Assembly: GCA_903944895.1 (NCBI GenBank)
Contig: CAJATL010000206.1
Location: forward strand, 1 to 64,000
DNA length: 64,000 nucleotides
From: an uncultured Bacteroidota bacterium
GTDB lineage: Bacteria > Bacteroidota > Bacteroidia > Bacteroidales > 4484-276
Direction of reading: 5' to 3'
The position numbers and the translations under genes are program-made. How positions within the stretch are numbered: position 1 is the stretch's first letter; each line of letters starts with the position of its first letter. The notes beneath the pieces were generated by a model. That model did no database searches. It was not told the origin of the DNA and worked only from the letters and a program-made list of their open reading frames with translations. Positions 9,407 to 64,000 of the stretch are shown here, one piece after another.

Positions 9407-11641
9407 TTATTGAATAATCAGTTTTTGGACCTTTACAAAATTGTCGCTTTCAATTTTAACGAAATACATTCCTTTTGGAGCATTCGAAAGATTCATCCGG
9501 GTTTTTCCCGAAAACGAGGTTTCATCAACCTTCTGACCTGTCAAATCCAAAATTGTAACAGTAAATTTCCGGTTGCCATCACCTGCAATAAATTCAATCA
9601 TCCCGTTACCGGGATTGGGGAAAAATGAAATACTGGTATTGGTATTTTCGCCGATGTAGGTTGGATTGAATACAATTTTTCCTGCAACCGATAATCCATC
9701 AGTGGTAAAAACGCCGTCGGATGAAGGCATGGTTGCATCAAAATCAAACCCGATTTCAAATTCCTGGTTTACCTGTGGCCTGAAAAGTTTAAAGCTTAAA
9801 AACTCGCTTTCATCAAAACCATCTTTTTCCAGGGTGGTTTGATCGTCACCAAAAACCTGCAACAAATAACTCTGCGAAATATCGTTAATCTGAACCATGC
9901 CAGCACAGATGCCATCCTGGGTAAAAGCCCCGATAACATCACCAGTCATTAATTTGCCCAGAACGCCCGAAGGCAGGGCAATCGAGTGATTTGATGGGGT
10001 CATGAGCGGTTCATTCCAGGGCGAGTTATTTTCGACAACCGTATTTTGGATTTCTTCATCTTTTAACGAAGTACAAGCCGGGAAAGTAACCGAAAAATTA
10101 GAGGTAACCCTCATCAGGTAAGCTTTTCCTGCCTGCAGGTTAAGCAGTGTTTTTATGTTAACCGCCGGCCAGTAAATATTTGAACCTGCTATTTCTTTGA
10201 TTACCGTAATTTTATTCAGATTGGCTGCAAAAAGCGATTCGATCGGCACATTACAGTCGCTAAGCACGGGAATGAGATTCCAACCGGTGATAAGGCTAAC
10301 TGTTTTTGGAGAATAATCACATCCGGTGATCGGTAAAGTGACAGGCTCAGTTACCTTAATTTTATAGCCCGAAACGGAACTCCAGTTGATAATTGTGTTA
10401 ACACTCTGGCTTGGCCAATAAGTTTTGGTGAGATTTTGAAGAATCACTAATTTGGATAAAATCGGCGCCATCAGCACCGTAATTGTAGCTGTACCGGTCC
10501 GTGGCAAAATATAGCTTGAAATGCCACTCCAGCCTTGCGGGATTTGCAAACTATGGGTTTTATTTATAGGCAGTGAAGAAACGATTGATAATCCACCGGG
10601 ATACCATTTGTTATTGGAAGTTAATAACCCGCCTGTTTCGAAAACCGGAAATGCCGGATATTCAAGCTGAGTAGTGTTTGTTGAGTAAACTTTCCATGTT
10701 ATTAATTCACCATAGGTAAACCCATCTTTTGCTGGTGTGTAAGTATCGTTGCCTAAAGCTGTAACCTGCGTATTTTCGGTTCCGGTCCACAAACCGGCAC
10801 CTCCACAATGCAGCAGGCCATCATCACCTGTATAAAAAACACCTATCCAGTCGCCGGCCTGGATGGGCACGCCGCAATAAGCTGGATTAGCAGATGTTCG
10901 TATCGAAATAATATGCACTTGTTCAGCATTAGCAGGATGATCCCAGCCTGGAGGCAAGGGCACAGAACCAACGGGTTGAGCCTCATAATCCTGGTTGTAA
11001 AAACTCTGGATAAGGTCTGGATAGCTTCGGCCTAGCGGAGAAAAGGTAAATTCATTCGAAGTTGGCGTTAAAGTGTAGCTTTCACAAGGCATGACTTCAA
11101 GGGAATATTGTCCCTGAGAATTGGTAGTAGTTGTAATGCCATTACCAAAATCGACGGTAAAGTTTGCCATACCCAAACCCGTACTTATATTGATAAACGT
11201 TCCGTTGATGATGTATTGATCAGTCGGGGTAGCCGTAAAATCCTGCCCGAGATAATTTAGTTTAACGAGGGTGTAAGTCCTGTTTACAGGAGAAAAACTA
11301 TATTGATCACAAAAATAGGGGGTCACTGTTCCTGACCAGTTTCTTTCTACCACAAACGAAAATTCCCCAAGTGCATTTGTGGTATCAATAACTCCGTCTG
11401 AACAGGTCATGATAACTCCTGAAAATGGAACCAATGGTGAGCCTGAATGATAAACTTTTCCGGAAATAGTATAGGTAATCAGAACATCAGGAAATAAAGC
11501 TCCTTTTTCGAATAAAGCATTTGCATCAGGTGATTTCGATAAATCAACTTTAGGGTTGTTTAATCTTGTGGAGTTTTGAGTGTTTTCAGCAAAAACAAAA
11601 ACCCATAAAAAACAAAAAATAAGTACTGTTGTAGATTTCAT
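9407..11641 (-). CDS. T9SS-secreted protein, tandem paralogue C
   Basis: 744 residues and the most divergent of the three tandem copies. It has a different signal peptide (MKSTTVLIFCFLWVFVFAE) but the same architecture: two regulatory-like beta domains, module 1 (GDWIGVFYTGDDG, CGGAG, KDGF), a linker, module 2 (GDVIGAFTQDG, CAG, GDDQTT, KDGF) and a type A sorting tail (SFFPNPGNG...GMYFVKIES). It lacks the linker segment around PLNNIPSASPR that A and B share, having PRTGTATITV instead, so A and B are probably the younger pair. It has its own terminator. Its role at the surface is unknown. Confidence 0.85.
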   Translation of the reverse strand: MKSTTVLIFCFLWVFVFAENTQNSTRLNNPKVDLSKSPDANALFEKGALFPDVLITYTISGKVYHSGSPLVPFSGVIMTCSDGVIDTTNALGEFSFVVERNWSGTVTPYFCDQYSFSPVNRTYTLVKLNYLGQDFTATPTDQYIINGTFINISTGLGMANFTVDFGNGITTTTNSQGQYSLEVMPCESYTLTPTSNEFTFSPLGRSYPDLIQSFYNQDYEAQPVGSVPLPPGWDHPANAEQVHIISIRTSANPAYCGVPIQAGDWIGVFYTGDDGLLHCGGAGLWTGTENTQVTALGNDTYTPAKDGFTYGELITWKVYSTNTTQLEYPAFPVFETGGLLTSNNKWYPGGLSIVSSLPINKTHSLQIPQGWSGISSYILPRTGTATITVLMAPILSKLVILQNLTKTYWPSQSVNTIINWSSVSGYKIKVTEPVTLPITGCDYSPKTVSLITGWNLIPVLSDCNVPIESLFAANLNKITVIKEIAGSNIYWPAVNIKTLLNLQAGKAYLMRVTSNFSVTFPACTSLKDEEIQNTVVENNSPWNEPLMTPSNHSIALPSGVLGKLMTGDVIGAFTQDGICAGMVQINDISQSYLLQVFGDDQTTLEKDGFDESEFLSFKLFRPQVNQEFEIGFDFDATMPSSDGVFTTDGLSVAGKIVFNPTYIGENTNTSISFFPNPGNGMIEFIAGDGNRKFTVTILDLTGQKVDETSFSGKTRMNLSNAPKGMYFVKIESDNFVKVQKLIIQ

Positions 11642-11780
11642 ATTTGTTTAGATTAAATTAGTTCCATAAAGATAACACATTTATTTGGAAATCAATCCGC
11701 CGGGTTTGACAAAGATAATGTTTTATAATGAATTAACAATTCAACTGCCCATTATGTTCTAAATGTTCTGTAAAATAAAA

Positions 11781-11807
11781 AAAGCCGGTGAATGATCCAC
11801 CGGCTTT
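11781..11807 (-). terminator. Rho-independent terminator of the GEVED protein gene
   Basis: Ten-bp arms AAAGCCGGTG (11781-11790) and CACCGGCTTT (11798-11807) around a 7-nt loop. On the minus strand the second arm runs into a T-rich tract. It lies about 20 nt after the stop at 11827. Confidence 0.85.
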
Positions 11808-11826
11808 CTTTTAACTTCAGAGCAGG

Positions 11827-14800
11827 TTATTTTTGAATAACAATTTTCTTAATGATGTTAATATTTTCACCACTCAGATTCAAATAATAAACACCTTCGC
11901 TGTATTTTTCAAGGTTAACAGTGGTGCTGTTCGCCTGATTGACCAGCATATCGTTTTTAGCATAAACTTCGATACCGATGGCATTGAAAATTCTCATCTG
12001 TACTGGTTTTTCATAATTGGTGCGTAATTCGATATTGAAAATGCCATTTGAAGGATTTGGGAAAACTTCAACTGACCAGCTATCGGATACTTCCTGAATA
12101 CCGGTACAATCGTCGAACTGAATTGAAATTTCATCAGTTTCTGAACAACTTTCGTTGCTGGTAACTTCAACCCAAACTGTTTTTGAACTATAACCTACGC
12201 CGGTAGTATCAACAACAATCGTTTGTGTTGTTTCACCAGTTGACCAAAGATAGGTAGTTCCTGCCGCTGGATTTCCTGCATCAAGGGTAACTGTCCAGTT
12301 TGCACAAACGGTCATGTCATCACCAAGTTCAACAGTAGGTAATGGATAAACCATCACTGGCATATGAACTGATTCTGGTCCTTCTCCGCAAGCATTAAAC
12401 GGGATAACCCAAATGTCGGCACCACCTGTGAAGGTTTCGCTCCAGGTAACTGTTGCAGTAAGTCCGTTACCTGCAATGGTTCCGGCTTCTAAAGGCCACA
12501 TCAGCCACAAGTAAGTTTGTGCACCTATTGAACCTGTTGTATTGTAAACGGTCTGGTATTCTCCAAAACATACCGAAGCCTGGCCTTGTGGTGCTTCTGG
12601 TTGCAGAGGCATGTTCATCACAGTGACAGTAGCCTGCTGGGTGAGTGTTGTTTCACCATCGTTAACCTCAACGGTGTAGGTTGTGGTAACAGTTGGCGAA
12701 ACTAGAGGATTTTGCTCGGTTGAAGTGAACCCGGCAGGATCTGAAGTCCATGAATAGGTGTAGCTTCCGGTTCCGCCTGAAACGATTGCTGCCAATTGTG
12801 ATGAAGCACCAGTACAAATTATTGCCGGATTGGCAATTACCTGTAAAGCTAATGGGAAAGTGCCGCCAACATTGAGTGTAATCGGAACATTGACTTCTGA
12901 TAATAAAGGATCGTTGGTTTCTACTTTTACATTTCCATAATAAGTACCGGCTTCAAGGTCTTGTGAATCAAAATCAACAGCAATAACTGCAGATGCTCCA
13001 GGGGCAATGGTATCAGTAACTCTGTCAACAAACATCCATCCAGATACGCTCACGGTGTAATCTTCGATTTCGCCGTAGGATGCACTTTCGCAAGGAACAG
13101 GAGGAGTACTGTAAGTCATACGGATTCTCATTCTGTGCTCTCCGCTTGGTGTTCCCATTGGGACGGTAATAACACCGGTGAAAGTCTGACCTGAACCGCC
13201 AACATTGTTTAATTGATATTCTTCATCAGTGCCAACACCAAAGGTAAAATCATCATTCCAGTCCACCCAGACATAAACAATATCACTTGCCCATGCATTG
13301 CCGTTGGAGACGGTAATGTTGTGTGAAGATCCAACTTCCATGAAGGCAACATTGTCGGTGTAATTAGCTACACCACCTTGCCATCCACTGCTTTTGCTGA
13401 TTTCGGCTACGACAACATTCGAAATGAACTCATCTTCGGTTGAAGTTGATGCAGTACAGTAATCTCTGCCTCTTGTTGGCTCGGTTGAAGAAGTGATCGA
13501 ATAAACCAGGTCGAGCTGGCCAACATTTGTAACATTAATGTAACGTGTTGAAGTGCTGCCAAGATCAATGTTTTCGATGATTTCTGCAGGATCAACGGCA
13601 ACATGCGGGTCGCCCCACTGAATTGTTGCGCTTGGTCCTGATGATTCGCCTTCGGTATGAACTGCAGTTACTTTGTATTTGTAAATGCCGTAGTCGGGGA
13701 GGTTGTCGGTGTAGAAATTATCGGTGGTAGTTCCAATCAGGAAATTATCACGATAAATATTAAAATTCTGAAAATTCGGAACCACCACAAATGACCAGTT
13801 AAGCTGAACAGCACCGGTTTCAAAAGTTACGCTGCCAATAAGATCGGTAGGTCTTGGAAGGCTGTTTGTTTCGTAAGGCGAAACATAAGTCATAACGTGT
13901 CCTGACCTGGTGTCGCACCATACCGGATAAACTTTTCCGCCACGTGCCGAAATACCCAGGTAGTCACCCATGTAGCTACCGGCAAGACCAGGAATTGGAG
14001 TTGGTGTAAAAGAAACATCGCTCACTTTAAAATCTTCCCAGGTATCGCCACCGTCAAAAGAGTTGGCGCAATAAACTTCGCATTGTGATCCGCCAACGTT
14101 GCGGTCGTCATAAAAAATTGTGCTGAGTGCACCTGTTTCGGGGTCGCAGGTAATCCATGGGAAATAATGTTTTTTACCCATGCCAATAGGATCCTGGTTT
14201 ACACGAATCGGTGTTGACCATGTAGTACCCTGGTCTTCTGAGCGAATCATGTAAATATCTCTGTCGGCGCCGCTGTTAATTCCGGGAATGCCACAATTTG
14301 TCCAGGTAACATAAATATTGCCGTTTTCGAGGTCAACTGCTGCTGAAGGGAACGAATTTACCCTTTGATTTTTCGAAACTCCTGTGTTACGGATACCTTT
14401 AATATTGGAGATAATCCTGGTTGCAGGTGTAAAAGTTGCACCGCCATCCAACGAACGGGCCATTCCAATAGAGGTTTCATCGGTTGGCCAGCCATCATAA
14501 ATCGAAAAAATAACATAAACCTCGCCATTAGGGCCAGTCTGAATGTTTACTCCCTGGCAATGGCTCCCAGCATTAACTGCTGAACTTACGTTTTTATGGG
14601 TCGAATAACTTATGCCGTTATTAGTTGAACGAACAAATTCGATATCCGAATCGTTTGAATTTCCAAAAGCTGTCCATGCATCATAAACATTACCTGCGTA
14701 AGGACTTGTCGGGCTGTTATCAATCCAAAGATGGTTTTTGTCCAACATTCCGCCACCGCCTGGTGAAGTACCTGCCTGAACTGATGTCCAGGTTGTTCCG

Positions 14801-57369: not shown

Positions 57370-57408
57370 CTATTCTTCCAGAAATACCGAAATAGGGTAA
57401 TGGTCGCT
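57370..57408 (-). pseudogene. C-terminal remnant of an endonuclease/exonuclease/phosphatase protein
   Basis: The minus strand reads SDHYPISVFLEE and a stop at 57370-57372. SDHYP is the conserved C-terminal motif of the EEP superfamily. The frame is open only to about residue -14 upstream, where it meets the plus-strand tail repeat, so only the end of the gene remains. Confidence 0.5.
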
Positions 57409-57481
57409 GAAACTAATTGAGACTTTCGTTTCTAAAAAGAGGTTTAAAGATTATCTGCAAAAGAAAATTGCTGCCTTATAA
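57404..57481 (+). pseudogene. Orphan gene tail, copy 1
   Basis: An open frame ends LIETFVSKKRF...KKIAAL and stops at 57479-57481. It has no start codon and a stop 6 nt before its first codon. The same tail recurs at 59757-59828; the 69 aligned nucleotides differ at five sites, all synonymous. Each copy is followed at once by a GC-rich terminator. Confidence 0.75.
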
Positions 57482-57490
57482 GAAAGAAAG

Positions 57491-57514: not shown

Positions 57515-58021
57515 TTATACTCTGTAATCCATAAAAATAAAACCAATTATTAAAAACATAAGGATGCCTATAATAATCCCAAAACTAATCCATGACCATC
57601 TTCTTTTAAAGGATGTACCCATCTTATCAAATTCCTGAAAATACTTTAGATATTTATCGTTTTTAAATAGAAGCATGTTGTTTATTATAATGGATATGAC
57701 GAAAGGTGGGATGATAATAAAAAAAAATCCATGAGGCTTAATCATTGTAATGCCTAAAAAAAACTCTATTATTCCTAATTGAAAAAAGAAAACTAGGCCA
57801 TACATAAAACCTCCTACCCTTATACTACTTAAACCAACATCTGGCAGTCTAAAAGCTGTATTCAGGTTACTTTCAACATCAACACCTTTCTTAGAATAGA
57901 ATTTCTTAATAAAAGTAATTCGTAAGAGCAAAACAACAGGATTGATGTTGTTAAATAGCAAATGCATTTTATAATCACCCTTATAGGCGCAATAATGTAT
58001 TATGTTCCAAAACCTTTCCAT
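57515..58021 (-). CDS. Three-TM membrane protein after the orphan Rhs tail, candidate immunity protein
   Basis: 168 residues. Hydrophobic segments lie near residues 70-92 (GGFMYGLVFFFQLGIIEFFLG), 96-115 (PHGFFFIIIPPFVISIIINNMLL) and 142-165 (WISFGIIIGILMFLIIGFIFM), with a basic N-terminus (ITFIKKFYSKKG). It starts 7 bp after the end of the orphan Rhs tail, in the same direction. Small membrane proteins in this position commonly protect against the upstream Rhs toxin (family knowledge); here the role is inferred from position and topology. It has no detectable sequence similarity by eye to the three-TM protein at 59865, as expected if each toxin has its own immunity protein. Confidence 0.65.
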   Translation of the reverse strand: MERFWNIIHYCAYKGDYKMHLLFNNINPVVLLLRITFIKKFYSKKGVDVESNLNTAFRLPDVGLSSIRVGGFMYGLVFFFQLGIIEFFLGITMIKPHGFFFIIIPPFVISIIINNMLLFKNDKYLKYFQEFDKMGTSFKRRWSWISFGIIIGILMFLIIGFIFMDYRV

Positions 58022-58028
58022 TTGTACT

Positions 58029-59457
58029 TTAATGAATTATATTATATAAACCTTCACCAAGATTACTTCCTCCAATTCCTCCAAACACACCACCAACAAT
58101 ACCTCCAATAATAGCACCTGGAACAGCTACAACGCCCCCAAAAAATCCTCCAATTAAAGCTCCTGTGGCAGCTCCAATTTCTGCCCCAGCCCATGCTGCT
58201 GTGATTCCAAGTGATGTTTTAGCTACTGCTAGTTGAGTTTTATCTCCATAACTATAACTATCATTCACCCATGCATCGCCAACACTAACAACTCCAAGGG
58301 CTAGACTGGTATAGATTGAATACCTACCTATTACTTTCCCATATTTAATTGCACTATAGGTGACTATTCCGGCTTTACTCCCACCAGTCCAATTGGAAGC
58401 ATAATAATGTGGACTCCAGCCACCTTCTTTTGTAAATCTAAAGGAACCAGTATTTGCTAAACCTGCCCCAAAACCTCCTATTGCATTGTTTATATGGTTA
58501 GCTGCTGTTAACCAACCCCCTCCTCCCTGGGGAATCCAAAATAAATGAGCTCCGGCAGTAGAATTTAAAAAAAGATATTCCCCCATTTTCAGATGTAATT
58601 GTTTCACCCAGAGAGCCAAAAGAACTAACAACATTAGTTCTACCAAAAGCGTCAATCAGGTATATGTCCATTCCGTCGTTGTACGCATCTGCCAAATCAC
58701 TGAAATTATTACGATTTGAATTCATAACTCGGTCGAAACTGTCATTATACTTTTCTTCACCATACTTATCTTTAAACGCCTCACCTGACATTAACATAAA
58801 GTTATAGTCCTGGCTTCTAAATTGATCACTCCAATGATTATTTGAGCCTGGTCCAATATGATGCTGGTATGAAGTCATCCAAACGTTTCCTGCAAAATCA
58901 CTCGGGTTTGGTTCATATCCACTCGGGTCGGTGTATTTTAAAGGGTTGTTCAAACAATAGCTGTACCTGTTGTAACTCTGTGTGTAGTCGGTAGCCTGAA
59001 CAAACGGATCAGGTGAAAGGAAACGGGCAACAAACGGGTCGTAAACCCTGCCGTTCATATTTATCAGGTTAAATTTGTCGAGGTGTTTGTGGCCGGGATA
59101 GCCCCTATCGAACAGAAAAGTGGTGGGTACATTTGTAAACGTCCAATCATTTGGGTTTCGCCGTTGTTCCTCCCGCCTTCGTTTCATTGGCGGGATTAGT
59201 TCCACCATCGGATTTGGCGAGTTTGCGAAGCCAAATCCGGGTGTCACTGAACATGGGTCAAAGCTAAGTTTTTCGATCAGGTTCCCGTTGTTAGAGGAAA
59301 TAACTCGGTATGTTTGGTTTTGCTTACGTAATTTCTTTCCAAAAGAATTGTAACGAAAGTAAATTTGATGCCCATCGGCATCAGTAATTTCAATCCGTTT
59401 GGGCAGATTTAAATGTTTGTTGTCGCTATGGATAATTTGTTTGCTCAAGTTTTTAAT
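58029..59457 (-). pseudogene. Displaced orphan Rhs core plus variable tail, frameshifted
   Basis: A C-terminal Rhs segment. It begins after a stop at 59458-59460; the only candidate start is a TTG at 59448. An N-terminal stretch ([25 protein letters not shown]) precedes a core nearly identical to the intact gene ([25 protein letters not shown] ... DPSGYEP ... HWSDQF). DNA identity stops near 58815 and a different tail follows. An A run of seven at 58567-58573 shifts the frame; removing one A joins the 316-codon part to the 208-codon part. The tail ends in repeated GxxxG segments (GGFFGGVVAVPGAIIGGIVGG). Most likely a silent toxin cassette. Confidence 0.75.
59168..59250. mobile_element. In-frame palindromic insertion in the orphan Rhs core
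   Basis: Compared with the intact gene, the core has 81 extra bases (27 residues) between SFDP and RRNPNDW. They contain a 7-bp stem TCCCGCC/GGCGGGA (59171-59177, 59189-59195) and a 10-bp stem CGGATTTGGC/GCCAAATCCG (59209-59218, 59230-59239). The frame stays open through it. Confidence 0.75.
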
Positions 59458-59538
59458 TTAGCCATTCCGATTGTAAAAGTAATCAAAATTTTTGCTGGGA
59501 ATCAATAACACCGGAATATCCTTACAAAACAAGGATGT

Positions 59539-59709
59539 TCATCTTGCTAACAATCGTTTTTTCCAATACATAAATGTTGCAAGTTTGTTGTTGTGCTCAC
59601 AACTAAATTGTTTTTGGCTCATACCACTCTGCTGCCACAGCCCAACTACTTCAATTACGGCCGTGACTTTGGATCCGTTTTGTATATTTTTTACCTCAAA
59701 ACTGTAACC
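59539..59709 (-). pseudogene. IS66-type accessory protein remnant
   Basis: The minus strand reads VIEVVGLWQQSGMSQKQF followed by SCEHNNKLATFMYWKKRLLAR and a stop. This is the pattern of the small IS66 family accessory protein TnpA (WqqSGlSqraFC...sFxYWrkkl). No start codon and an in-frame stop at 59710-59712. No transposase or inverted repeats are left. The rest of 59458-59864 holds only the tail repeat and a terminator. Confidence 0.65.
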
Positions 59710-59756
59710 TCAATTTAGCTAAGCCAATGTGGATTGGCTGTAGGGATGCTTTGCTT

Positions 59757-59828
59757 AAACTGATTGAGACTTTCGTTTCTAAAAAGCGGTTTAAAGATTA
59801 CCTGCAAAAAAAAATTGCTGCATTATAA
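59757..59828 (+). pseudogene. Orphan gene tail, copy 2
   Basis: Ends in the same KKRF...KKIAAL as copy 1, stop at 59826-59828. The frame is open upstream (GCRDALLKLIETF) but not preceded by a gene. It differs from copy 1 only at five synonymous positions across 69 nt. Confidence 0.75.
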
Positions 59829-59830
59829 TC

Positions 59831-59857
59831 AAAAAGCCCGGCAAGCCCGGGCTTTTT
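59831..59857. terminator. Bidirectional terminator after tail copy 2
   Basis: Ten-bp arms AAAAAGCCCG (59831-59840) and CGGGCTTTTT (59848-59857) with a 7-nt loop; the T run on either strand makes it bidirectional. It also ends the minus gene at 59865. Confidence 0.9.
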
Positions 59858-59864
59858 GATTTAT

Positions 59865-60266
59865 TTATCCATTAAGTTTTTTGATAAACATCGCACTCAG
59901 GACAAAGAGAGCAAAGGATAATATGACATATAGCCAAATAAGAATCGTATTTATTCTTCTCTTTTCGGGTGGTTCCTTCTTTAGCTCTTTTACTGTTGAC
60001 CTATAATTACCTCTATGGATGAATAGGAAGTAATTTACAACAAACAAGCTTAACATTATTATTATAAGCTCTTTCTTGGGCAGTTCATCGCGCAAAAAAA
60101 TATTTACTCCCAAAAACTGTAGTAAAAATCCCAATAATCCCAGATTAAGGAACATCATAAAAGATACCCCAAACAAAGCATTCCATTGTGGAAGGTCCTT
60201 TTCACCCCATGTTTTCAGGTTCCATGAGTATAGCCGGTAGTACAAGTATCTATAAATCTTCATCAT
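59865..60266 (-). CDS. Three-TM membrane protein overlapping the Rhs gene, candidate immunity protein
   Basis: 133 residues. Hydrophobic segments near 30-55 (FGVSFMMFLNLGLLGFLLQFLGV), 65-85 (ELIIIMLSLFVVNYFLF) and 105-128 (ILIWLYVILSFALFVLSAMF) are separated by a basic loop (RGNYRSTVKELKKEPPEKRR). Its ATG overlaps the Rhs stop by 4 bp (ATGA), so the two are translationally coupled. This is the usual toxin-then-immunity order. The same topology as the gene at 57515 but no obvious sequence similarity. The name immunity protein is inferred from position. Confidence 0.7.
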   Translation of the reverse strand: MMKIYRYLYYRLYSWNLKTWGEKDLPQWNALFGVSFMMFLNLGLLGFLLQFLGVNIFLRDELPKKELIIIMLSLFVVNYFLFIHRGNYRSTVKELKKEPPEKRRINTILIWLYVILSFALFVLSAMFIKKLNG

Positions 60267-63200
60267 CGCAAAGGGAAAATTACTCGTGGTGCAACATAGG
60301 TATTATCTGGGACTGCGTACATTGGCGGTGTATACGGTGTTGTTATCATTGGACGGTCAAATGCCCCAAGTGCATCAAGTGCAAAATATCCACCTCCAAT
60401 AATCCATCCTGGAGGACCTCCAAAGGTTGCAAAAGCACCCATTCCTATATCTAAACCTGATTTTGCAGCTCCGGCATAATTTCCGTTCAAAAGGGCTTGG
60501 CCACCTTGATATAATGATATTCCCGTTCCAACAACAAAGAAGCCTCTACTTGCAAGTTTGAAATAGCCAGCTTTACTCAAGGCATTTGCACGTGCTCCTG
60601 TCCATTGATTGCCTCCCCATTCCAAGGAGTTCCATTTTCCGTTTACACCTCTCCAACTTCCGTTTATAACATTTGAATATTCTCCGGCACTTGAAAAAAA
60701 TCCAGCAGCATTCAAACCCATTCCAATAGCGTAAAGCGAATTACCCCCTCCACCTTGGGCATTCTCTATCTTCACAAAACGTAATATATTCTCATAGCTT
60801 GGTAATTGGTTTTGAGAAGAGTTCACACCATCCCAATCAAAGGAACCAACGATGTTGCTGTTGGGAACACTAACCCACATGCCTTGAGCGAGGGATAGAT
60901 TCCCCTGCTGCCATAGACTCCTTACATTGGGATCATTCAATGCCTGATTAACCATATCCCATGCTCCATCACCATGGATACTATTGAACGTTGATGTATT
61001 CATCAACATTAAATTGCCATAATCACTTCTAAATTGATCACTCCAATGATTATTTGAGCCTGGTCCAATATGATGCTGGTATGAAGTCATCCAAACGTTT
61101 CCTGCAAAATCACTCGGGCTTGGTTCATATCCACTCGGGTCGGTGTATTTTAATGGATTATTCAAACAATAGCTGTACCTGTTGTAACTCTGTGTGTAGT
61201 CGGTAGCCTGAACAAATGGGTCGGGTGAAAGGAAACGGGCAACAAACGGGTCGTAAACCCTGCCATTCATATTTATCAGGTTAAACTTTTCGAGGTGTTC
61301 GTGGCCGGTATAGCCCCTATCAAACAGAAAGCTGGTTGGCACATTTGTAAACGTCCAATCATTTGGGTTTCGCCGTCGTCCCCAAGGATCGAAGCTCAGT
61401 TTTTCGATCAGGTTCCCGTTGCTAGAGGAAATTGCCTGGTAAGATCCCATAAAATCTTTGTGAATGTAATACATAGTACCTGCGTTGTTTTCGATAACAT
61501 AAATCGCAAACAACCCATCGCCGCCATAAAGATAATGCAGTTTGCGTTCCTGCCCTTGTGCATTTGTTTCGACCTCATAATTATTCCCAATAAAATATTT
61601 ATTTTCGATCAGGGTTTCATGATCGGTATTATTGGTAGCGACTAACGCTGTTTTTTTTCGGTTTTCATCCGGCCCATAAGTAAAATACATTTTTAATGCT
61701 GCAATGGAATGTGTAATTTCGCTAACTTTATTAAATGCATTGTACTCAACCTCTTCGGGTGTTGCCGATTGTAAAAAACCTGTGGTCGGCTGCACTATCG
61801 AACTCACGGCGTGGGGACCTCCTGTTGAACCAACGACATTGTAAATGTATGGGTTACCAACATCCGACTTTTGGTTTATATTTCCATTATCTTCGTAAGC
61901 CATACTTGTCGTTTGTCCTCCTGCAACGGTCCATGAAGTTAGCCTTGCCTTAAATTTGTCGGTGTCGTAACCAAAATATTCTAACAGGTCGTCATTCGGA
62001 GTGGCTGGATCTTTTAAATCCTTACGCCAGCTAAGGTTCCCGGTGGGGGGATCAAATACGTACGACAAGTTTTGAACGGAATTGCTTGTAACAATACTAG
62101 CAGGAAATCCATAATTATCATATCCTTTGGTTGTTGTTAATCCATTTCCCAACAGGTATTCTTTTATTTGTCCACGGGCATTCATATCATTTAATTGCCA
62201 TAAAGTTTTTGATGTATTGCTTTCGACTACCTTGCAAAGATAACCGTTTTTGTATTTGTAATTTAGGGCATAGTCCGAAGGCCATATTTCTTTTTTCAAG
62301 TTCCCAAATACATCATATTCATATTTGGCGACAAAGGGAAGCCCCTCAATGGTTTCTGTTTTTTCGATAGCCCGGCAGTATTGATCGTATGTAAATGAGG
62401 TTGAAATTCCATTCCAGCCAACAACAGATTCCGGTAATCCCAATCCGTTTTCTCCATCATAAGTATAAGTGGTAATCTGTTCAGGATTGGTAAGTTTCTT
62501 TTCAGTTATCCTGCCAAGTGCGTCATACTTCATCAGATAGTTGTTTCCCTTATTATCGGTTTGCGAAACAAGTTGCCCAAAAGGATCATACTCATAATTT
62601 GTCAATCCGGCATCAGGATCATCAAGGTTTTCCTGGAAACCCGCAGTATTGTACGACATCGTTATGGTGGTTTGGTTAAAGCCTTCACCGTTTGTAACCT
62701 CAAAAGGTTTACCGGTGCTATTATATTTGTAATAAATAGTGCCTCCGGGGTCTGTTGAGTTCAGGATGTTACCGATAGGGTCAGTTGTTTTCGTAACTAC
62801 CTGTCCGGTTGTGAGGTTTTCGGTGATAATTGTAAGGCCGTCGTAAGTATAGTTTATTTCGCCAGTTGGTCTATTGATTGTTTTTACCTGCCCAAAGGGT
62901 AAATAATCATAACTGGTAACTAATGCTGTTTCACCAATAAAATGGGGCTCGGATTGCTCTTGTAGTTTTCCGTGCGCGGGTTGAGATGAACCATAATAAT
63001 CCGAATTGACATAAACTTTTGTTTCTCCATCAAAATGGTATTCAATGCTCAAATGACCGCGTCCGTTATTGTCGTTAAAGGATAATACTTCCTTTTCGCC
63101 GGAAACCTTGCTCCAGGTATAAAACACGCCAAATTGAGGATTTTCAGGATAGTCAAAAGCCCATCGCATTACATTTTCAATTTGTTTCCCATCCGGCAGT

Positions 63201-64000
63201 ATTGTCTTGTTCAACCGATCAAATCCATCGTAAAAATATTGAGTAGTAAGACCGTTGATGTCCGTTGTAGTTTTAGTCAATCCGGTTTTGGGATAGTATT
63301 GTGCACTTTCGATAAATGCAATATTACCAAGAGTTTTGGTTGATTTGGTTAAAAACCGGTGCTGGTATTCTTCACTGTATTCGTAATTGGTAACCCTGCT
63401 TTCGACTGTTTGATGGTTGTAATTTGGAGCTTCGATGGTTTTTTTGGTAATATTGCCAAAATTGTCGTACTCAAAGGATGTATTAATCTGATAATCACTG
63501 GTATTATTTGGAATAAACATCTTGGTTTTTAAAAGAGGATATTGCTGTTGGGGATCATTCTGAGGATAATATGAATAAGTACTGGTCTGTTGAAACGTAG
63601 TATTATCATCCGGATATTTTTTGGTTATTGTTTCATTTTGAATCCTCGAAATCAGCCAATCATCAAGGTTATCATAATTATAAACTAAGTCGGCAAAAGT
63701 ATAAAACCCATAAGACGAGTTTGGTGCTGAAAGTTCTAATTCATCTTCATCAACATAAATCTTGTAACCGGAAATGTTTCCATAATATTTATCAGTTTCG
63801 GAGTAGTTTCTTTCTATCCTCACAGTTTTTACGTAGCCACTTCCCTGATCGCCTGTACTAAATGTTTTATTAAGCGAAACCGGATCATACGTGAATATTC
63901 TCTTATTGCCAAAATCAACAACCGTATTCTGTTGGTTAACAGTTTCCGAGATCAATTCATCGCCAAGGTACGTTTCCTGCTTCAACGAAAAAGGATAAAA
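60263..64000 (-). CDS. Large Rhs/YD-repeat protein with variable C-terminal tail (5' end beyond the window)
   Basis: The frame is open to the right edge, and the codon at 63985 that looks like a start is TTG, so the gene extends further; 1245 residues are visible. Many YD/Rhs repeats (YDGFDRLNKTI, YDPFGQLVSQTD, YDALGRITEKKL) build the shell. The Rhs core follows ([64 protein letters not shown]). About 287 residues come after DPSGY; from about 61026 they differ from the orphan copy. That tail has a WTG segment and a Gly-rich hydrophobic end (GGPPGWIIGGGYFALDALGAF). No known nuclease motif. Probably a secreted toxin delivered by another system (inference). Confidence 0.92.
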   Translation of the reverse strand, partial: FYPFSLKQETYLGDELISETVNQQNTVVDFGNKRIFTYDPVSLNKTFSTGDQGSGYVKTVRIERNYSETDKYYGNISGYKIYVDEDELELSAPNSSYGFYTFADLVYNYDNLDDWLISRIQNETITKKYPDDNTTFQQTSTYSYYPQNDPQQQYPLLKTKMFIPNNTSDYQINTSFEYDNFGNITKKTIEAPNYNHQTVESRVTNYEYSEEYQHRFLTKSTKTLGNIAFIESAQYYPKTGLTKTTTDINGLTTQYFYDGFDRLNKTILPDGKQIENVMRWAFDYPENPQFGVFYTWSKVSGEKEVLSFNDNNGRGHLSIEYHFDGETKVYVNSDYYGSSQPAHGKLQEQSEPHFIGETALVTSYDYLPFGQVKTINRPTGEINYTYDGLTIITENLTTGQVVTKTTDPIGNILNSTDPGGTIYYKYNSTGKPFEVTNGEGFNQTTITMSYNTAGFQENLDDPDAGLTNYEYDPFGQLVSQTDNKGNNYLMKYDALGRITEKKLTNPEQITTYTYDGENGLGLPESVVGWNGISTSFTYDQYCRAIEKTETIEGLPFVAKYEYDVFGNLKKEIWPSDYALNYKYKNGYLCKVVESNTSKTLWQLNDMNARGQIKEYLLGNGLTTTKGYDNYGFPASIVTSNSVQNLSYVFDPPTGNLSWRKDLKDPATPNDDLLEYFGYDTDKFKARLTSWTVAGGQTTSMAYEDNGNINQKSDVGNPYIYNVVGSTGGPHAVSSIVQPTTGFLQSATPEEVEYNAFNKVSEITHSIAALKMYFTYGPDENRKKTALVATNNTDHETLIENKYFIGNNYEVETNAQGQERKLHYLYGGDGLFAIYVIENNAGTMYYIHKDFMGSYQAISSSNGNLIEKLSFDPWGRRRNPNDWTFTNVPTSFLFDRGYTGHEHLEKFNLINMNGRVYDPFVARFLSPDPFVQATDYTQSYNRYSYCLNNPLKYTDPSGYEPSPSDFAGNVWMTSYQHHIGPGSNNHWSDQFRSDYGNLMLMNTSTFNSIHGDGAWDMVNQALNDPNVRSLWQQGNLSLAQGMWVSVPNSNIVGSFDWDGVNSSQNQLPSYENILRFVKIENAQGGGGNSLYAIGMGLNAAGFFSSAGEYSNVINGSWRGVNGKWNSLEWGGNQWTGARANALSKAGYFKLASRGFFVVGTGISLYQGGQALLNGNYAGAAKSGLDIGMGAFATFGGPPGWIIGGGYFALDALGAFDRPMITTPYTPPMYAVPDNTYVAPRVIFPLR

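What the first reader, a model, noticed from the sequence alone, without database searches (positions are those of the whole stretch)
57515..64000. Rhs toxin/immunity locus with a displaced second cassette
The sequence shows an Rhs gene whose tail overlaps a three-TM gene by ATGA. Downstream is a second Rhs core joined to an unrelated tail, followed after 7 bp by another three-TM gene. The two cores are near-identical up to the same point (61026 and 58815), after which the tails differ completely. Rhs and CDI loci are known to store displaced toxin cassettes that recombine onto the shared core. The specific tails and membrane partners here are not ones I recognise.
Basis: partly seen in the sequence, partly recalled or inferred. 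Interest (0 to 1): 0.8.

Follow-up and report, generated by a model that had tools for sequence, protein, structure and literature searches.

The report
Rhs toxin with displaced spare cassette
A Bacteroidota bacterium carries a large secreted toxin gene with its protective partner and, right behind it, a worn spare toxin tip with a second partner; both partners are membrane proteins distantly related to each other and to the antidote of a Bacteroides fragilis weapon, which suggests both tips attack the cell membrane.

Summary
The finding holds. On the minus strand a 2135-aa Rhs protein (SpvB, FG-GAP, TcdB_midN, RHS repeats) ends in a 253-aa tail that overlaps by ATGA a three-TM gene. Behind it lies a truncated second core: 357 nt at 94.7% identity, breaking exactly at 61026/58814. 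It carries an unrelated tail and, 7 bp on, another membrane gene. An 83-nt downstream flank is duplicated with the cassette.

Corrections: the displaced tail is frameshifted (homopolymers at 58567-58584), its core has an 81-nt insertion, and the two three-TM partners are distant homologues.

Both tail-partner pairs recur across Bacteroidota. Nine further loci have pair 1; its partner hits NCBIfam Bfi1 immunity (2e-18, below cut-off) and relatives of its tail hit the C-terminus of the T6SS effector Bfe1 (5e-8). Eight further loci have pair 2, a Gly-rich tail plus a partner that no family model describes; in one genome that tail sits on the full-length Rhs. AlphaFold2 gives the second partner three long helices (pLDDT 89) without PDB match.

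Best reading: an ordinary polymorphic Rhs system whose active and displaced tails probably both act on the inner membrane. Membrane action is inferred, not shown.

The parts
60263..64000 (-). 3' part of the main Rhs gene (whole protein 2135 aa, continues about 2.7 kb beyond the window)
   Evidence: Pfam SpvB, FG-GAP, TcdB_toxin_midN, RHS_repeat; Rhs_assc_core TIGR03696
61026..61441 (-). end of the Rhs core shared with the displaced copy
   Evidence: 357 nt at 94.7% identity plus 59 nt at 85%
60266..61025 (-). polymorphic tail 1 (253 aa); the last ~130 aa (60266-60664) is the putative toxin domain, relatives of which match the C-terminus of Bfe1
59865..60266 (-). partner 1: 133-aa three-TM immunity candidate of the Bfi1 kind, ATGA overlap with the Rhs gene
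   Evidence: NF053699 E=2e-18, 66.6 bits, below the curated cut-off of 100; hydropathy
59753..59835 (.). 83-nt flank repeat, copy 1, with a terminator-like hairpin
   Evidence: 89% to copy 2; only these two copies in the genome
58814..59448 (-). displaced, 5'-truncated second Rhs core (homology to the main core 58814-59310)
59171..59251 (.). 81-nt in-frame insertion in the displaced core, with inverted repeat GGATTTGGC/GCCAAATCC, unique in the genome
58567..58584 (.). probable frameshift site (A7 and C5 runs on the + strand) between displaced core frame and tail frame
   Evidence: sequence; frames
58029..58655 (-). displaced tail 2 (Gly-rich tail), frame different from its core
   Evidence: relative on a full-length Rhs in G031 and upstream of a type-2 partner in seven other loci
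57515..58021 (-). partner 2: 168-aa three-TM immunity candidate, no Pfam/NCBIfam family
   Evidence: AlphaFold2 pLDDT 88.7, helices 64-92, 99-132, 136-165; no PDB fold match
57406..57488 (.). 83-nt flank repeat, copy 2, behind partner 2

Best explanation
This is a polymorphic Rhs toxin locus of the SpvB/FG-GAP/TcdB-mid/RHS kind. The large protein is exported through Sec (and perhaps the type IX system, whose SprA is in the genome), the RHS shell encloses the C-terminal tail, and the tail is delivered to competing cells. The active tail is followed by its translationally coupled immunity gene. A new core-tail-immunity cassette, with its 3' flank, recombined into the shared core, and the older tail with its immunity gene was pushed behind it. 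The old tail then decayed (core truncation, insertion, frameshift) while its immunity gene stayed open. Both tails most likely act on the inner membrane (pore or depolarisation). Their three-TM partners, remote homologues of one another and of Bfi1, would neutralise them there. Shown: gene order, core identity, break point, flank duplication, frameshift in the assembly, recurrence of both pairs, homology of the two partner families, relation of pair 1 to Bfe1/Bfi1. Inferred: export route, toxicity, neutralisation, membrane action, direction of the replacement.
For: Core identity and break; flank repeat present only behind the two immunity genes; Pfam architecture; pair 1 recurs in nine other loci with tail stop to partner start -4 to 56 nt, and all six of their upstream frames that were scanned have an Rhs-core hit; the Bfi1 model hits partner 1 at 2e-18 and the L103 partner at 1.3e-4, the Bfe1 model hits the L088 tail at 5e-8 over profile 232-313 and L060 at 4e-4; pair 2 recurs in eight other loci incl. 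Labilibaculum and Pedobacter and sits on a full Rhs in G031; partner families homologous: hhalign 96.4%, E 1.4e-9, score 61.5 against at most 34.5 in 59 block-shuffled controls and 18 reversed; weak Gly-zipper match of tail 2; published precedents: the Rhs tail of Tse5 forms pores and has a two-TM immunity protein (PMC9637101), CDI ionophore toxins have hydrophobic membrane immunity proteins (PMC11630599), Bfe1 kills when sent to the periplasm (PMC6692515).
Against: Tail 1 itself hits no family and has no window of strong hydropathy, so membrane insertion of tail 1 rests on its partner and on weakly hydrophobic Gly-rich stretches. The Bfi1 score is below the equivalog cut-off. The AlphaFold2 model of tail 2 is poor (pLDDT 45). 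Tails 1 and 2 show no profile similarity. Orphan immunity genes can have other roles. Nothing here shows toxicity.
Confidence: 0.72

Rival explanations
1. The locus is a polymorphic Rhs toxin with displaced cassette, but the tails are not membrane toxins: the Gly-rich parts are only translocation segments, and the active part is an undetected enzyme, or the tails are non-toxic linkers.
For: No catalytic family detected but also no strong TM segment in tail 1; a glycine zipper can serve translocation of an enzymatic effector (PMC10240207, title and abstract); poor model of tail 2.
Against: Both tails end in the Gly-rich domain with little room for a further domain; both partners are integral membrane proteins of one superfamily; the Bfe1 model matches just this terminal domain in relatives of tail 1.
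Confidence: 0.2
2. The second copy is not a stored, still usable cassette but only debris; what selection keeps is the second immunity gene, which protects against neighbours that still carry tail 2 on their Rhs gene. (Compatible with the best explanation; it concerns what the copy is for now.)
For: Displaced core truncated and interrupted, tail frameshifted, immunity gene open; free-standing type-2 immunity genes occur in Muribaculum (three in tandem), Polaribacter, Arcticiflavibacter and Mucilaginibacter records; orphan immunity genes protect gut Bacteroidales (PMC12247911, title).
Against: The shared core and flank repeat still give homology for recombination; the frameshift lies in homopolymers and may be an assembly error; arrays with open displaced tails exist in the same genome (C181) and in G638.
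Confidence: 0.45
3. The second copy is an assembly artefact of two strains merged in a metagenome bin (one with each tail).
For: Draft genome of 424 contigs with a 4% contamination estimate.
Against: Both copies lie in tandem in one 104-kb contig, with a truncated core and duplicated flank; the same arrangement is seen in several other genomes.
Confidence: 0.04

Closest known systems
TcdB/TcaC-type polymorphic toxins with RHS repeats (Zhang et al. 2012, PMC3482391)
   Same: Signal peptide, SpvB, integrin-like propeller (FG-GAP), RHS, exchangeable C-terminal tail, immunity gene downstream, silent cassettes (median one active to three cassettes)
   Different: The tail and immunity families here are not in the parts of that catalogue I read; the displaced cassette carries a duplicated downstream flank
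Bfe1/Bfi1 T6SS effector-immunity pair of Bacteroides fragilis 638R (NCBIfam NF053698/NF053699)
   Same: Partner 1 matches Bfi1 over its full length; relatives of tail 1 match the last ~85 residues of Bfe1, each with a Bfi1-like gene directly downstream
   Different: Carried on Rhs cores instead of a 313-position T6SS effector; scores below the equivalog cut-offs; TssD not detected in this genome (no positive control)
Tse5 (RhsP1)/Tsi5 of Pseudomonas aeruginosa
   Same: Rhs protein with a tail reported to form membrane pores and an integral membrane immunity protein (PMC9637101)
   Different: T6SS/VgrG delivery; two-TM immunity; no sequence relation seen here
CDI ionophore toxins of E. coli (PMC11630599)
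   Same: Membrane-depolarising tails with very hydrophobic immunity proteins that diversify in pairs
   Different: CdiA scaffold; two-helix immunity of 72-100 aa; sequence relation not tested
Orphan rhs-CT/rhsI cassettes of enterobacteria (PMC3150448, PMC3967940)
   Same: Displaced tails with partial core homology behind the main gene (own knowledge; only titles and abstracts seen)
   Different: Different scaffold and delivery; here the displaced tail is frameshifted

Membership tests
Polymorphic Rhs toxin locus (TcdB/TcaC type) | SpvB + FG-GAP + TcdB mid + RHS repeats in one protein | tested here: met
   all above curated cut-offs
Polymorphic Rhs toxin locus (TcdB/TcaC type) | Rhs-associated core followed by variable tail | tested here: met
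   TIGR03696 2.4e-16; break at 61026/58814
Polymorphic Rhs toxin locus (TcdB/TcaC type) | signal peptide | tested here: inconclusive
   MKRLFLVFIFTISLLQGYSQ by eye; no predictor available
Polymorphic Rhs toxin locus (TcdB/TcaC type) | cognate immunity gene directly downstream | tested here: met
   position and recurrence in 17 other loci, gaps -4 to 56 nt; protection itself not testable here
Polymorphic Rhs toxin locus (TcdB/TcaC type) | displaced core-tail-immunity cassettes | tested here: met
   second array in C181 with Ntox23 tails
Bfe1/Bfi1 effector-immunity pair | immunity above NF053699 cut-off (100 bits) | tested here: not met
   66.6 bits, E 2e-18: relative, not equivalog
Bfe1/Bfi1 effector-immunity pair | effector matches NF053698 | tested here: not met
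   tail 1 itself no hit; relatives L088 5.3e-8, L060 4e-4, L050 0.11 over the C-terminal part only
Bfe1/Bfi1 effector-immunity pair | T6SS delivery | tested here: inconclusive
   TssD PF17642 none in own genome, but nothing rang in controls either
Pore-forming or ionophore toxin | depolarises the target inner membrane | not testable with these tools
   needs an assay
Pore-forming or ionophore toxin | integral membrane immunity protein | tested here: met
   three hydrophobic segments in both, helices in model of partner 2
CDI (CdiA/CdiB) | two-partner secretion scaffold | tested here: not met
   scaffold is SpvB/RHS with no filamentous haemagglutinin match

The most novel reading that the evidence does not exclude
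Bacteroidota share one superfamily of three-TM immunity proteins (Bfi1-like, the partner-1 kind, and the undescribed partner-2 kind) that neutralises two differently built membrane-attacking Rhs tails, and the T6SS effector Bfe1 is such an Rhs tail moved onto another delivery system; immunity proteins of the superfamily may have been re-paired between toxin types.
Probability: 0.4. Interest if true: 0.6.

Novelty: new member of a known kind. Interest (0 to 1): 0.42.

Why it matters
The locus itself is a normal example of toxin-tail exchange. What is new is the link: the antidote of a potent Bacteroides fragilis T6SS toxin, for which I found no stated mechanism in the open papers I could search, belongs to a wide family of membrane partners of Rhs tails, and a second such tail family with its partner has no entry in Pfam or NCBIfam. 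That makes a testable prediction for Bfe1 (inner-membrane damage) and gives toxin-immunity families to annotate across Bacteroidota.

Tried and rejected
PDB sequence searches with both partner and tail profiles: nothing credible. Foldseek of the partner-2 model against PDB: no match at E <= 0.001. AlphaFold2 of tail 2: too low in confidence to use, so it was not searched by fold. Tail 1 against tail 2 as profiles: no similarity; tail 1 against the Pedobacter type-2 tail shares a GSWxGxNxKW-GNQxTGxR stretch (phmmer 3e-4, strong composition bias), reported only as a hint of a shared entry segment. Residual likeness just after the break between the two window tails was at chance level (85 of 500 shuffles). 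Viral contigs: no relatives. Weak Pfam hits of the partners (Glyco_transf_15, AgrB) rejected as below cut-off and compositional. The idea of a mobile element behind the flank repeat: only two copies in the genome. The displaced gene was searched in two pieces and not mended.
Full report
Observation. The window lies in a 104-kb contig (C206) of a 7.17-Mb, 424-contig genome. The Rhs frame at 60263-64000 runs on to give a 2135-aa protein that starts with a signal-peptide-like stretch and contains SpvB, FG-GAP, TcdB_toxin_midN and RHS repeats and an Rhs-associated core. This is the TcdB/TcaC-type polymorphic toxin layout of Zhang et al. 2012 (PMC3482391, read). Its 253-aa tail (60266-61025) ends in a TGA that overlaps the ATG of a 133-aa gene (59865-60266).

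The second core matches the first over 357 nt at 94.7% (61026-61382 and 58814-59170) and a further 59 nt at 85% beyond an 81-nt insertion. The break is sharp at 61026/58814; likeness after it is at chance level. The displaced copy is cut at its 5' side, and its core and tail are in different frames (58498-59448 and 58029-58655), with A7 and C5 runs at 58567-58584 as the likely frameshift site. The tail frame ends 7 nt before a 168-aa gene (57515-58021). An 83-nt repeat (89%) follows each partner gene (57406-57488, 59753-59835) and occurs nowhere else in the genome. The duplicated unit is thus core end, tail, partner and downstream flank, as expected if a cassette with its flank recombined in front of the older one. 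This order of events is inferred.

Pair 1. Partner 1 hits the NCBIfam Bfi1 immunity family at 2e-18, 66.6 bits against a cut-off of 100. Searches of Bacteroidota genomes with partner 1, with the Bfi1 and Bfe1 families and with the tail gave nine further loci in which a Bfi1-like three-TM gene lies -4 to 56 nt behind a tail with a related C-terminal Gly-rich domain. All six of those upstream frames that were scanned have an Rhs-core hit, one of them weak. Other hits were free-standing immunity genes. Relatives of tail 1 match the C-terminal part of the Bfe1 family model: L088 5.3e-8 over profile 232-313, L060 4e-4, L050 0.11. L103 was found with tail 1, and its partner hits the Bfi1 model at 1.3e-4. 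So both halves of pair 1 point at both halves of Bfe1/Bfi1, at a distance that makes it a relative, not an equivalog. Published work describes Bfe1 as a potent T6SS effector of strain 638R that kills when sent to the periplasm (PMC6692515).

Pair 2. The displaced tail (weak Gly-zipper hits) has a 47% identical relative on a 1455-aa open Rhs frame in G031, followed by a 49% identical partner. A scan of 84,980 species found 11 loci with relatives of partner 2. Together with G638, eight loci besides the window have the tail directly upstream (-4 to 12 nt), among them Labilibaculum filiforme and Pedobacter frigoris; others are free-standing partner genes, three in tandem in a Muribaculum record. 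No Pfam or NCBIfam family covers partner 2. Its AlphaFold2 model (11 sequences, pLDDT 88.7, pTM 0.80) is all helical with three long helices fitting TM segments and matches nothing in PDB. In G031 the situation is the mirror image of the window: a relative of tail 2 is on the main gene and another cassette with a lipoprotein-like partner is displaced behind it, sharing 351 nt at 95.2%.

The two partner families are homologous over 61-75 columns of their C-terminal part: hhalign 94%, and with more sequences 96.4%, E 1.4e-9, score 61.5; 59 controls with columns shuffled inside blocks of ten reached 34.5 at most and the reversed profile 18. G070 (L107) has a tail of type-1 look (by eye) and a partner matching the type-2 profile at 2.4e-6, which fits a continuous superfamily. 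The tails themselves show no profile similarity, only a suggestive shared stretch between tail 1 and the Pedobacter tail.

Mechanism. Gene order, recurrence and partner homology make cognate toxin-immunity pairs very likely. That both tails act on the inner membrane is inferred from membrane-embedded partners, Gly-rich terminal domains, and precedents: Tse5, an Rhs tail shown to form pores with a TM immunity protein (PMC9637101), and CDI ionophores with hydrophobic immunity proteins (PMC11630599). Against it, tail 1 has no strongly hydrophobic window. Export may use the type IX system, since SprA is present and Por_Secre_tail and YadA_head genes lie upstream, much as proposed for TANFOR toxins (PMC7073777); this is conjecture, and the Rhs protein itself has no sorting domain at its end because the tail is there.

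Generality. Multiple cores in tandem occur in many genomes of the order, G638 has a main gene with about five displaced cassettes, and the window's own genome has a second array in C181 with two Ntox23 tails and signal-bearing partners. The locus is therefore an ordinary member of a known kind; the Bfe1/Bfi1 link and the undescribed second pair are the useful additions.

Noticed in passing
L007 (own genome, contig C181) 2921-10526: A second array of three to four truncated Rhs cores in tandem; two tails are Ntox23 (PF15528) and the downstream partners carry Sec or lipoprotein-like signals. The fourth core is cut by a convergent gene at 10507-12861.
   Followed up: partly
57406-57488 and 59753-59835: Flank repeat encoding on + a 24-aa C-terminal-like peptide (LKLIETFVSKKRFKDYLQKKIAAL) followed by a terminator-like hairpin; parent gene not identified.
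   Followed up: partly
59171-59251: 81-nt in-frame insertion with a short inverted repeat in the displaced core, single copy in the genome.
   Followed up: yes
L006 10226-12767 (own genome, upstream of the main Rhs gene): Two genes before the Rhs gene: one with a T9SS sorting domain and a YD motif, one with YadA head repeats; further genes with sorting-domain-like ends lie beyond.
   Followed up: partly
L099 2739-4567 (Muribaculum record): Three free-standing type-2 immunity-like genes in tandem.
   Followed up: no
L085 5689-7318 (G031): Displaced cassette whose tail looks by eye like an M23 peptidase, with a lipoprotein-like partner.
   Followed up: no
L044 1878-3324 and L103 2339-3268: In two distant genomes a displaced Rhs core also follows the type-1 pair directly.
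   Followed up: no
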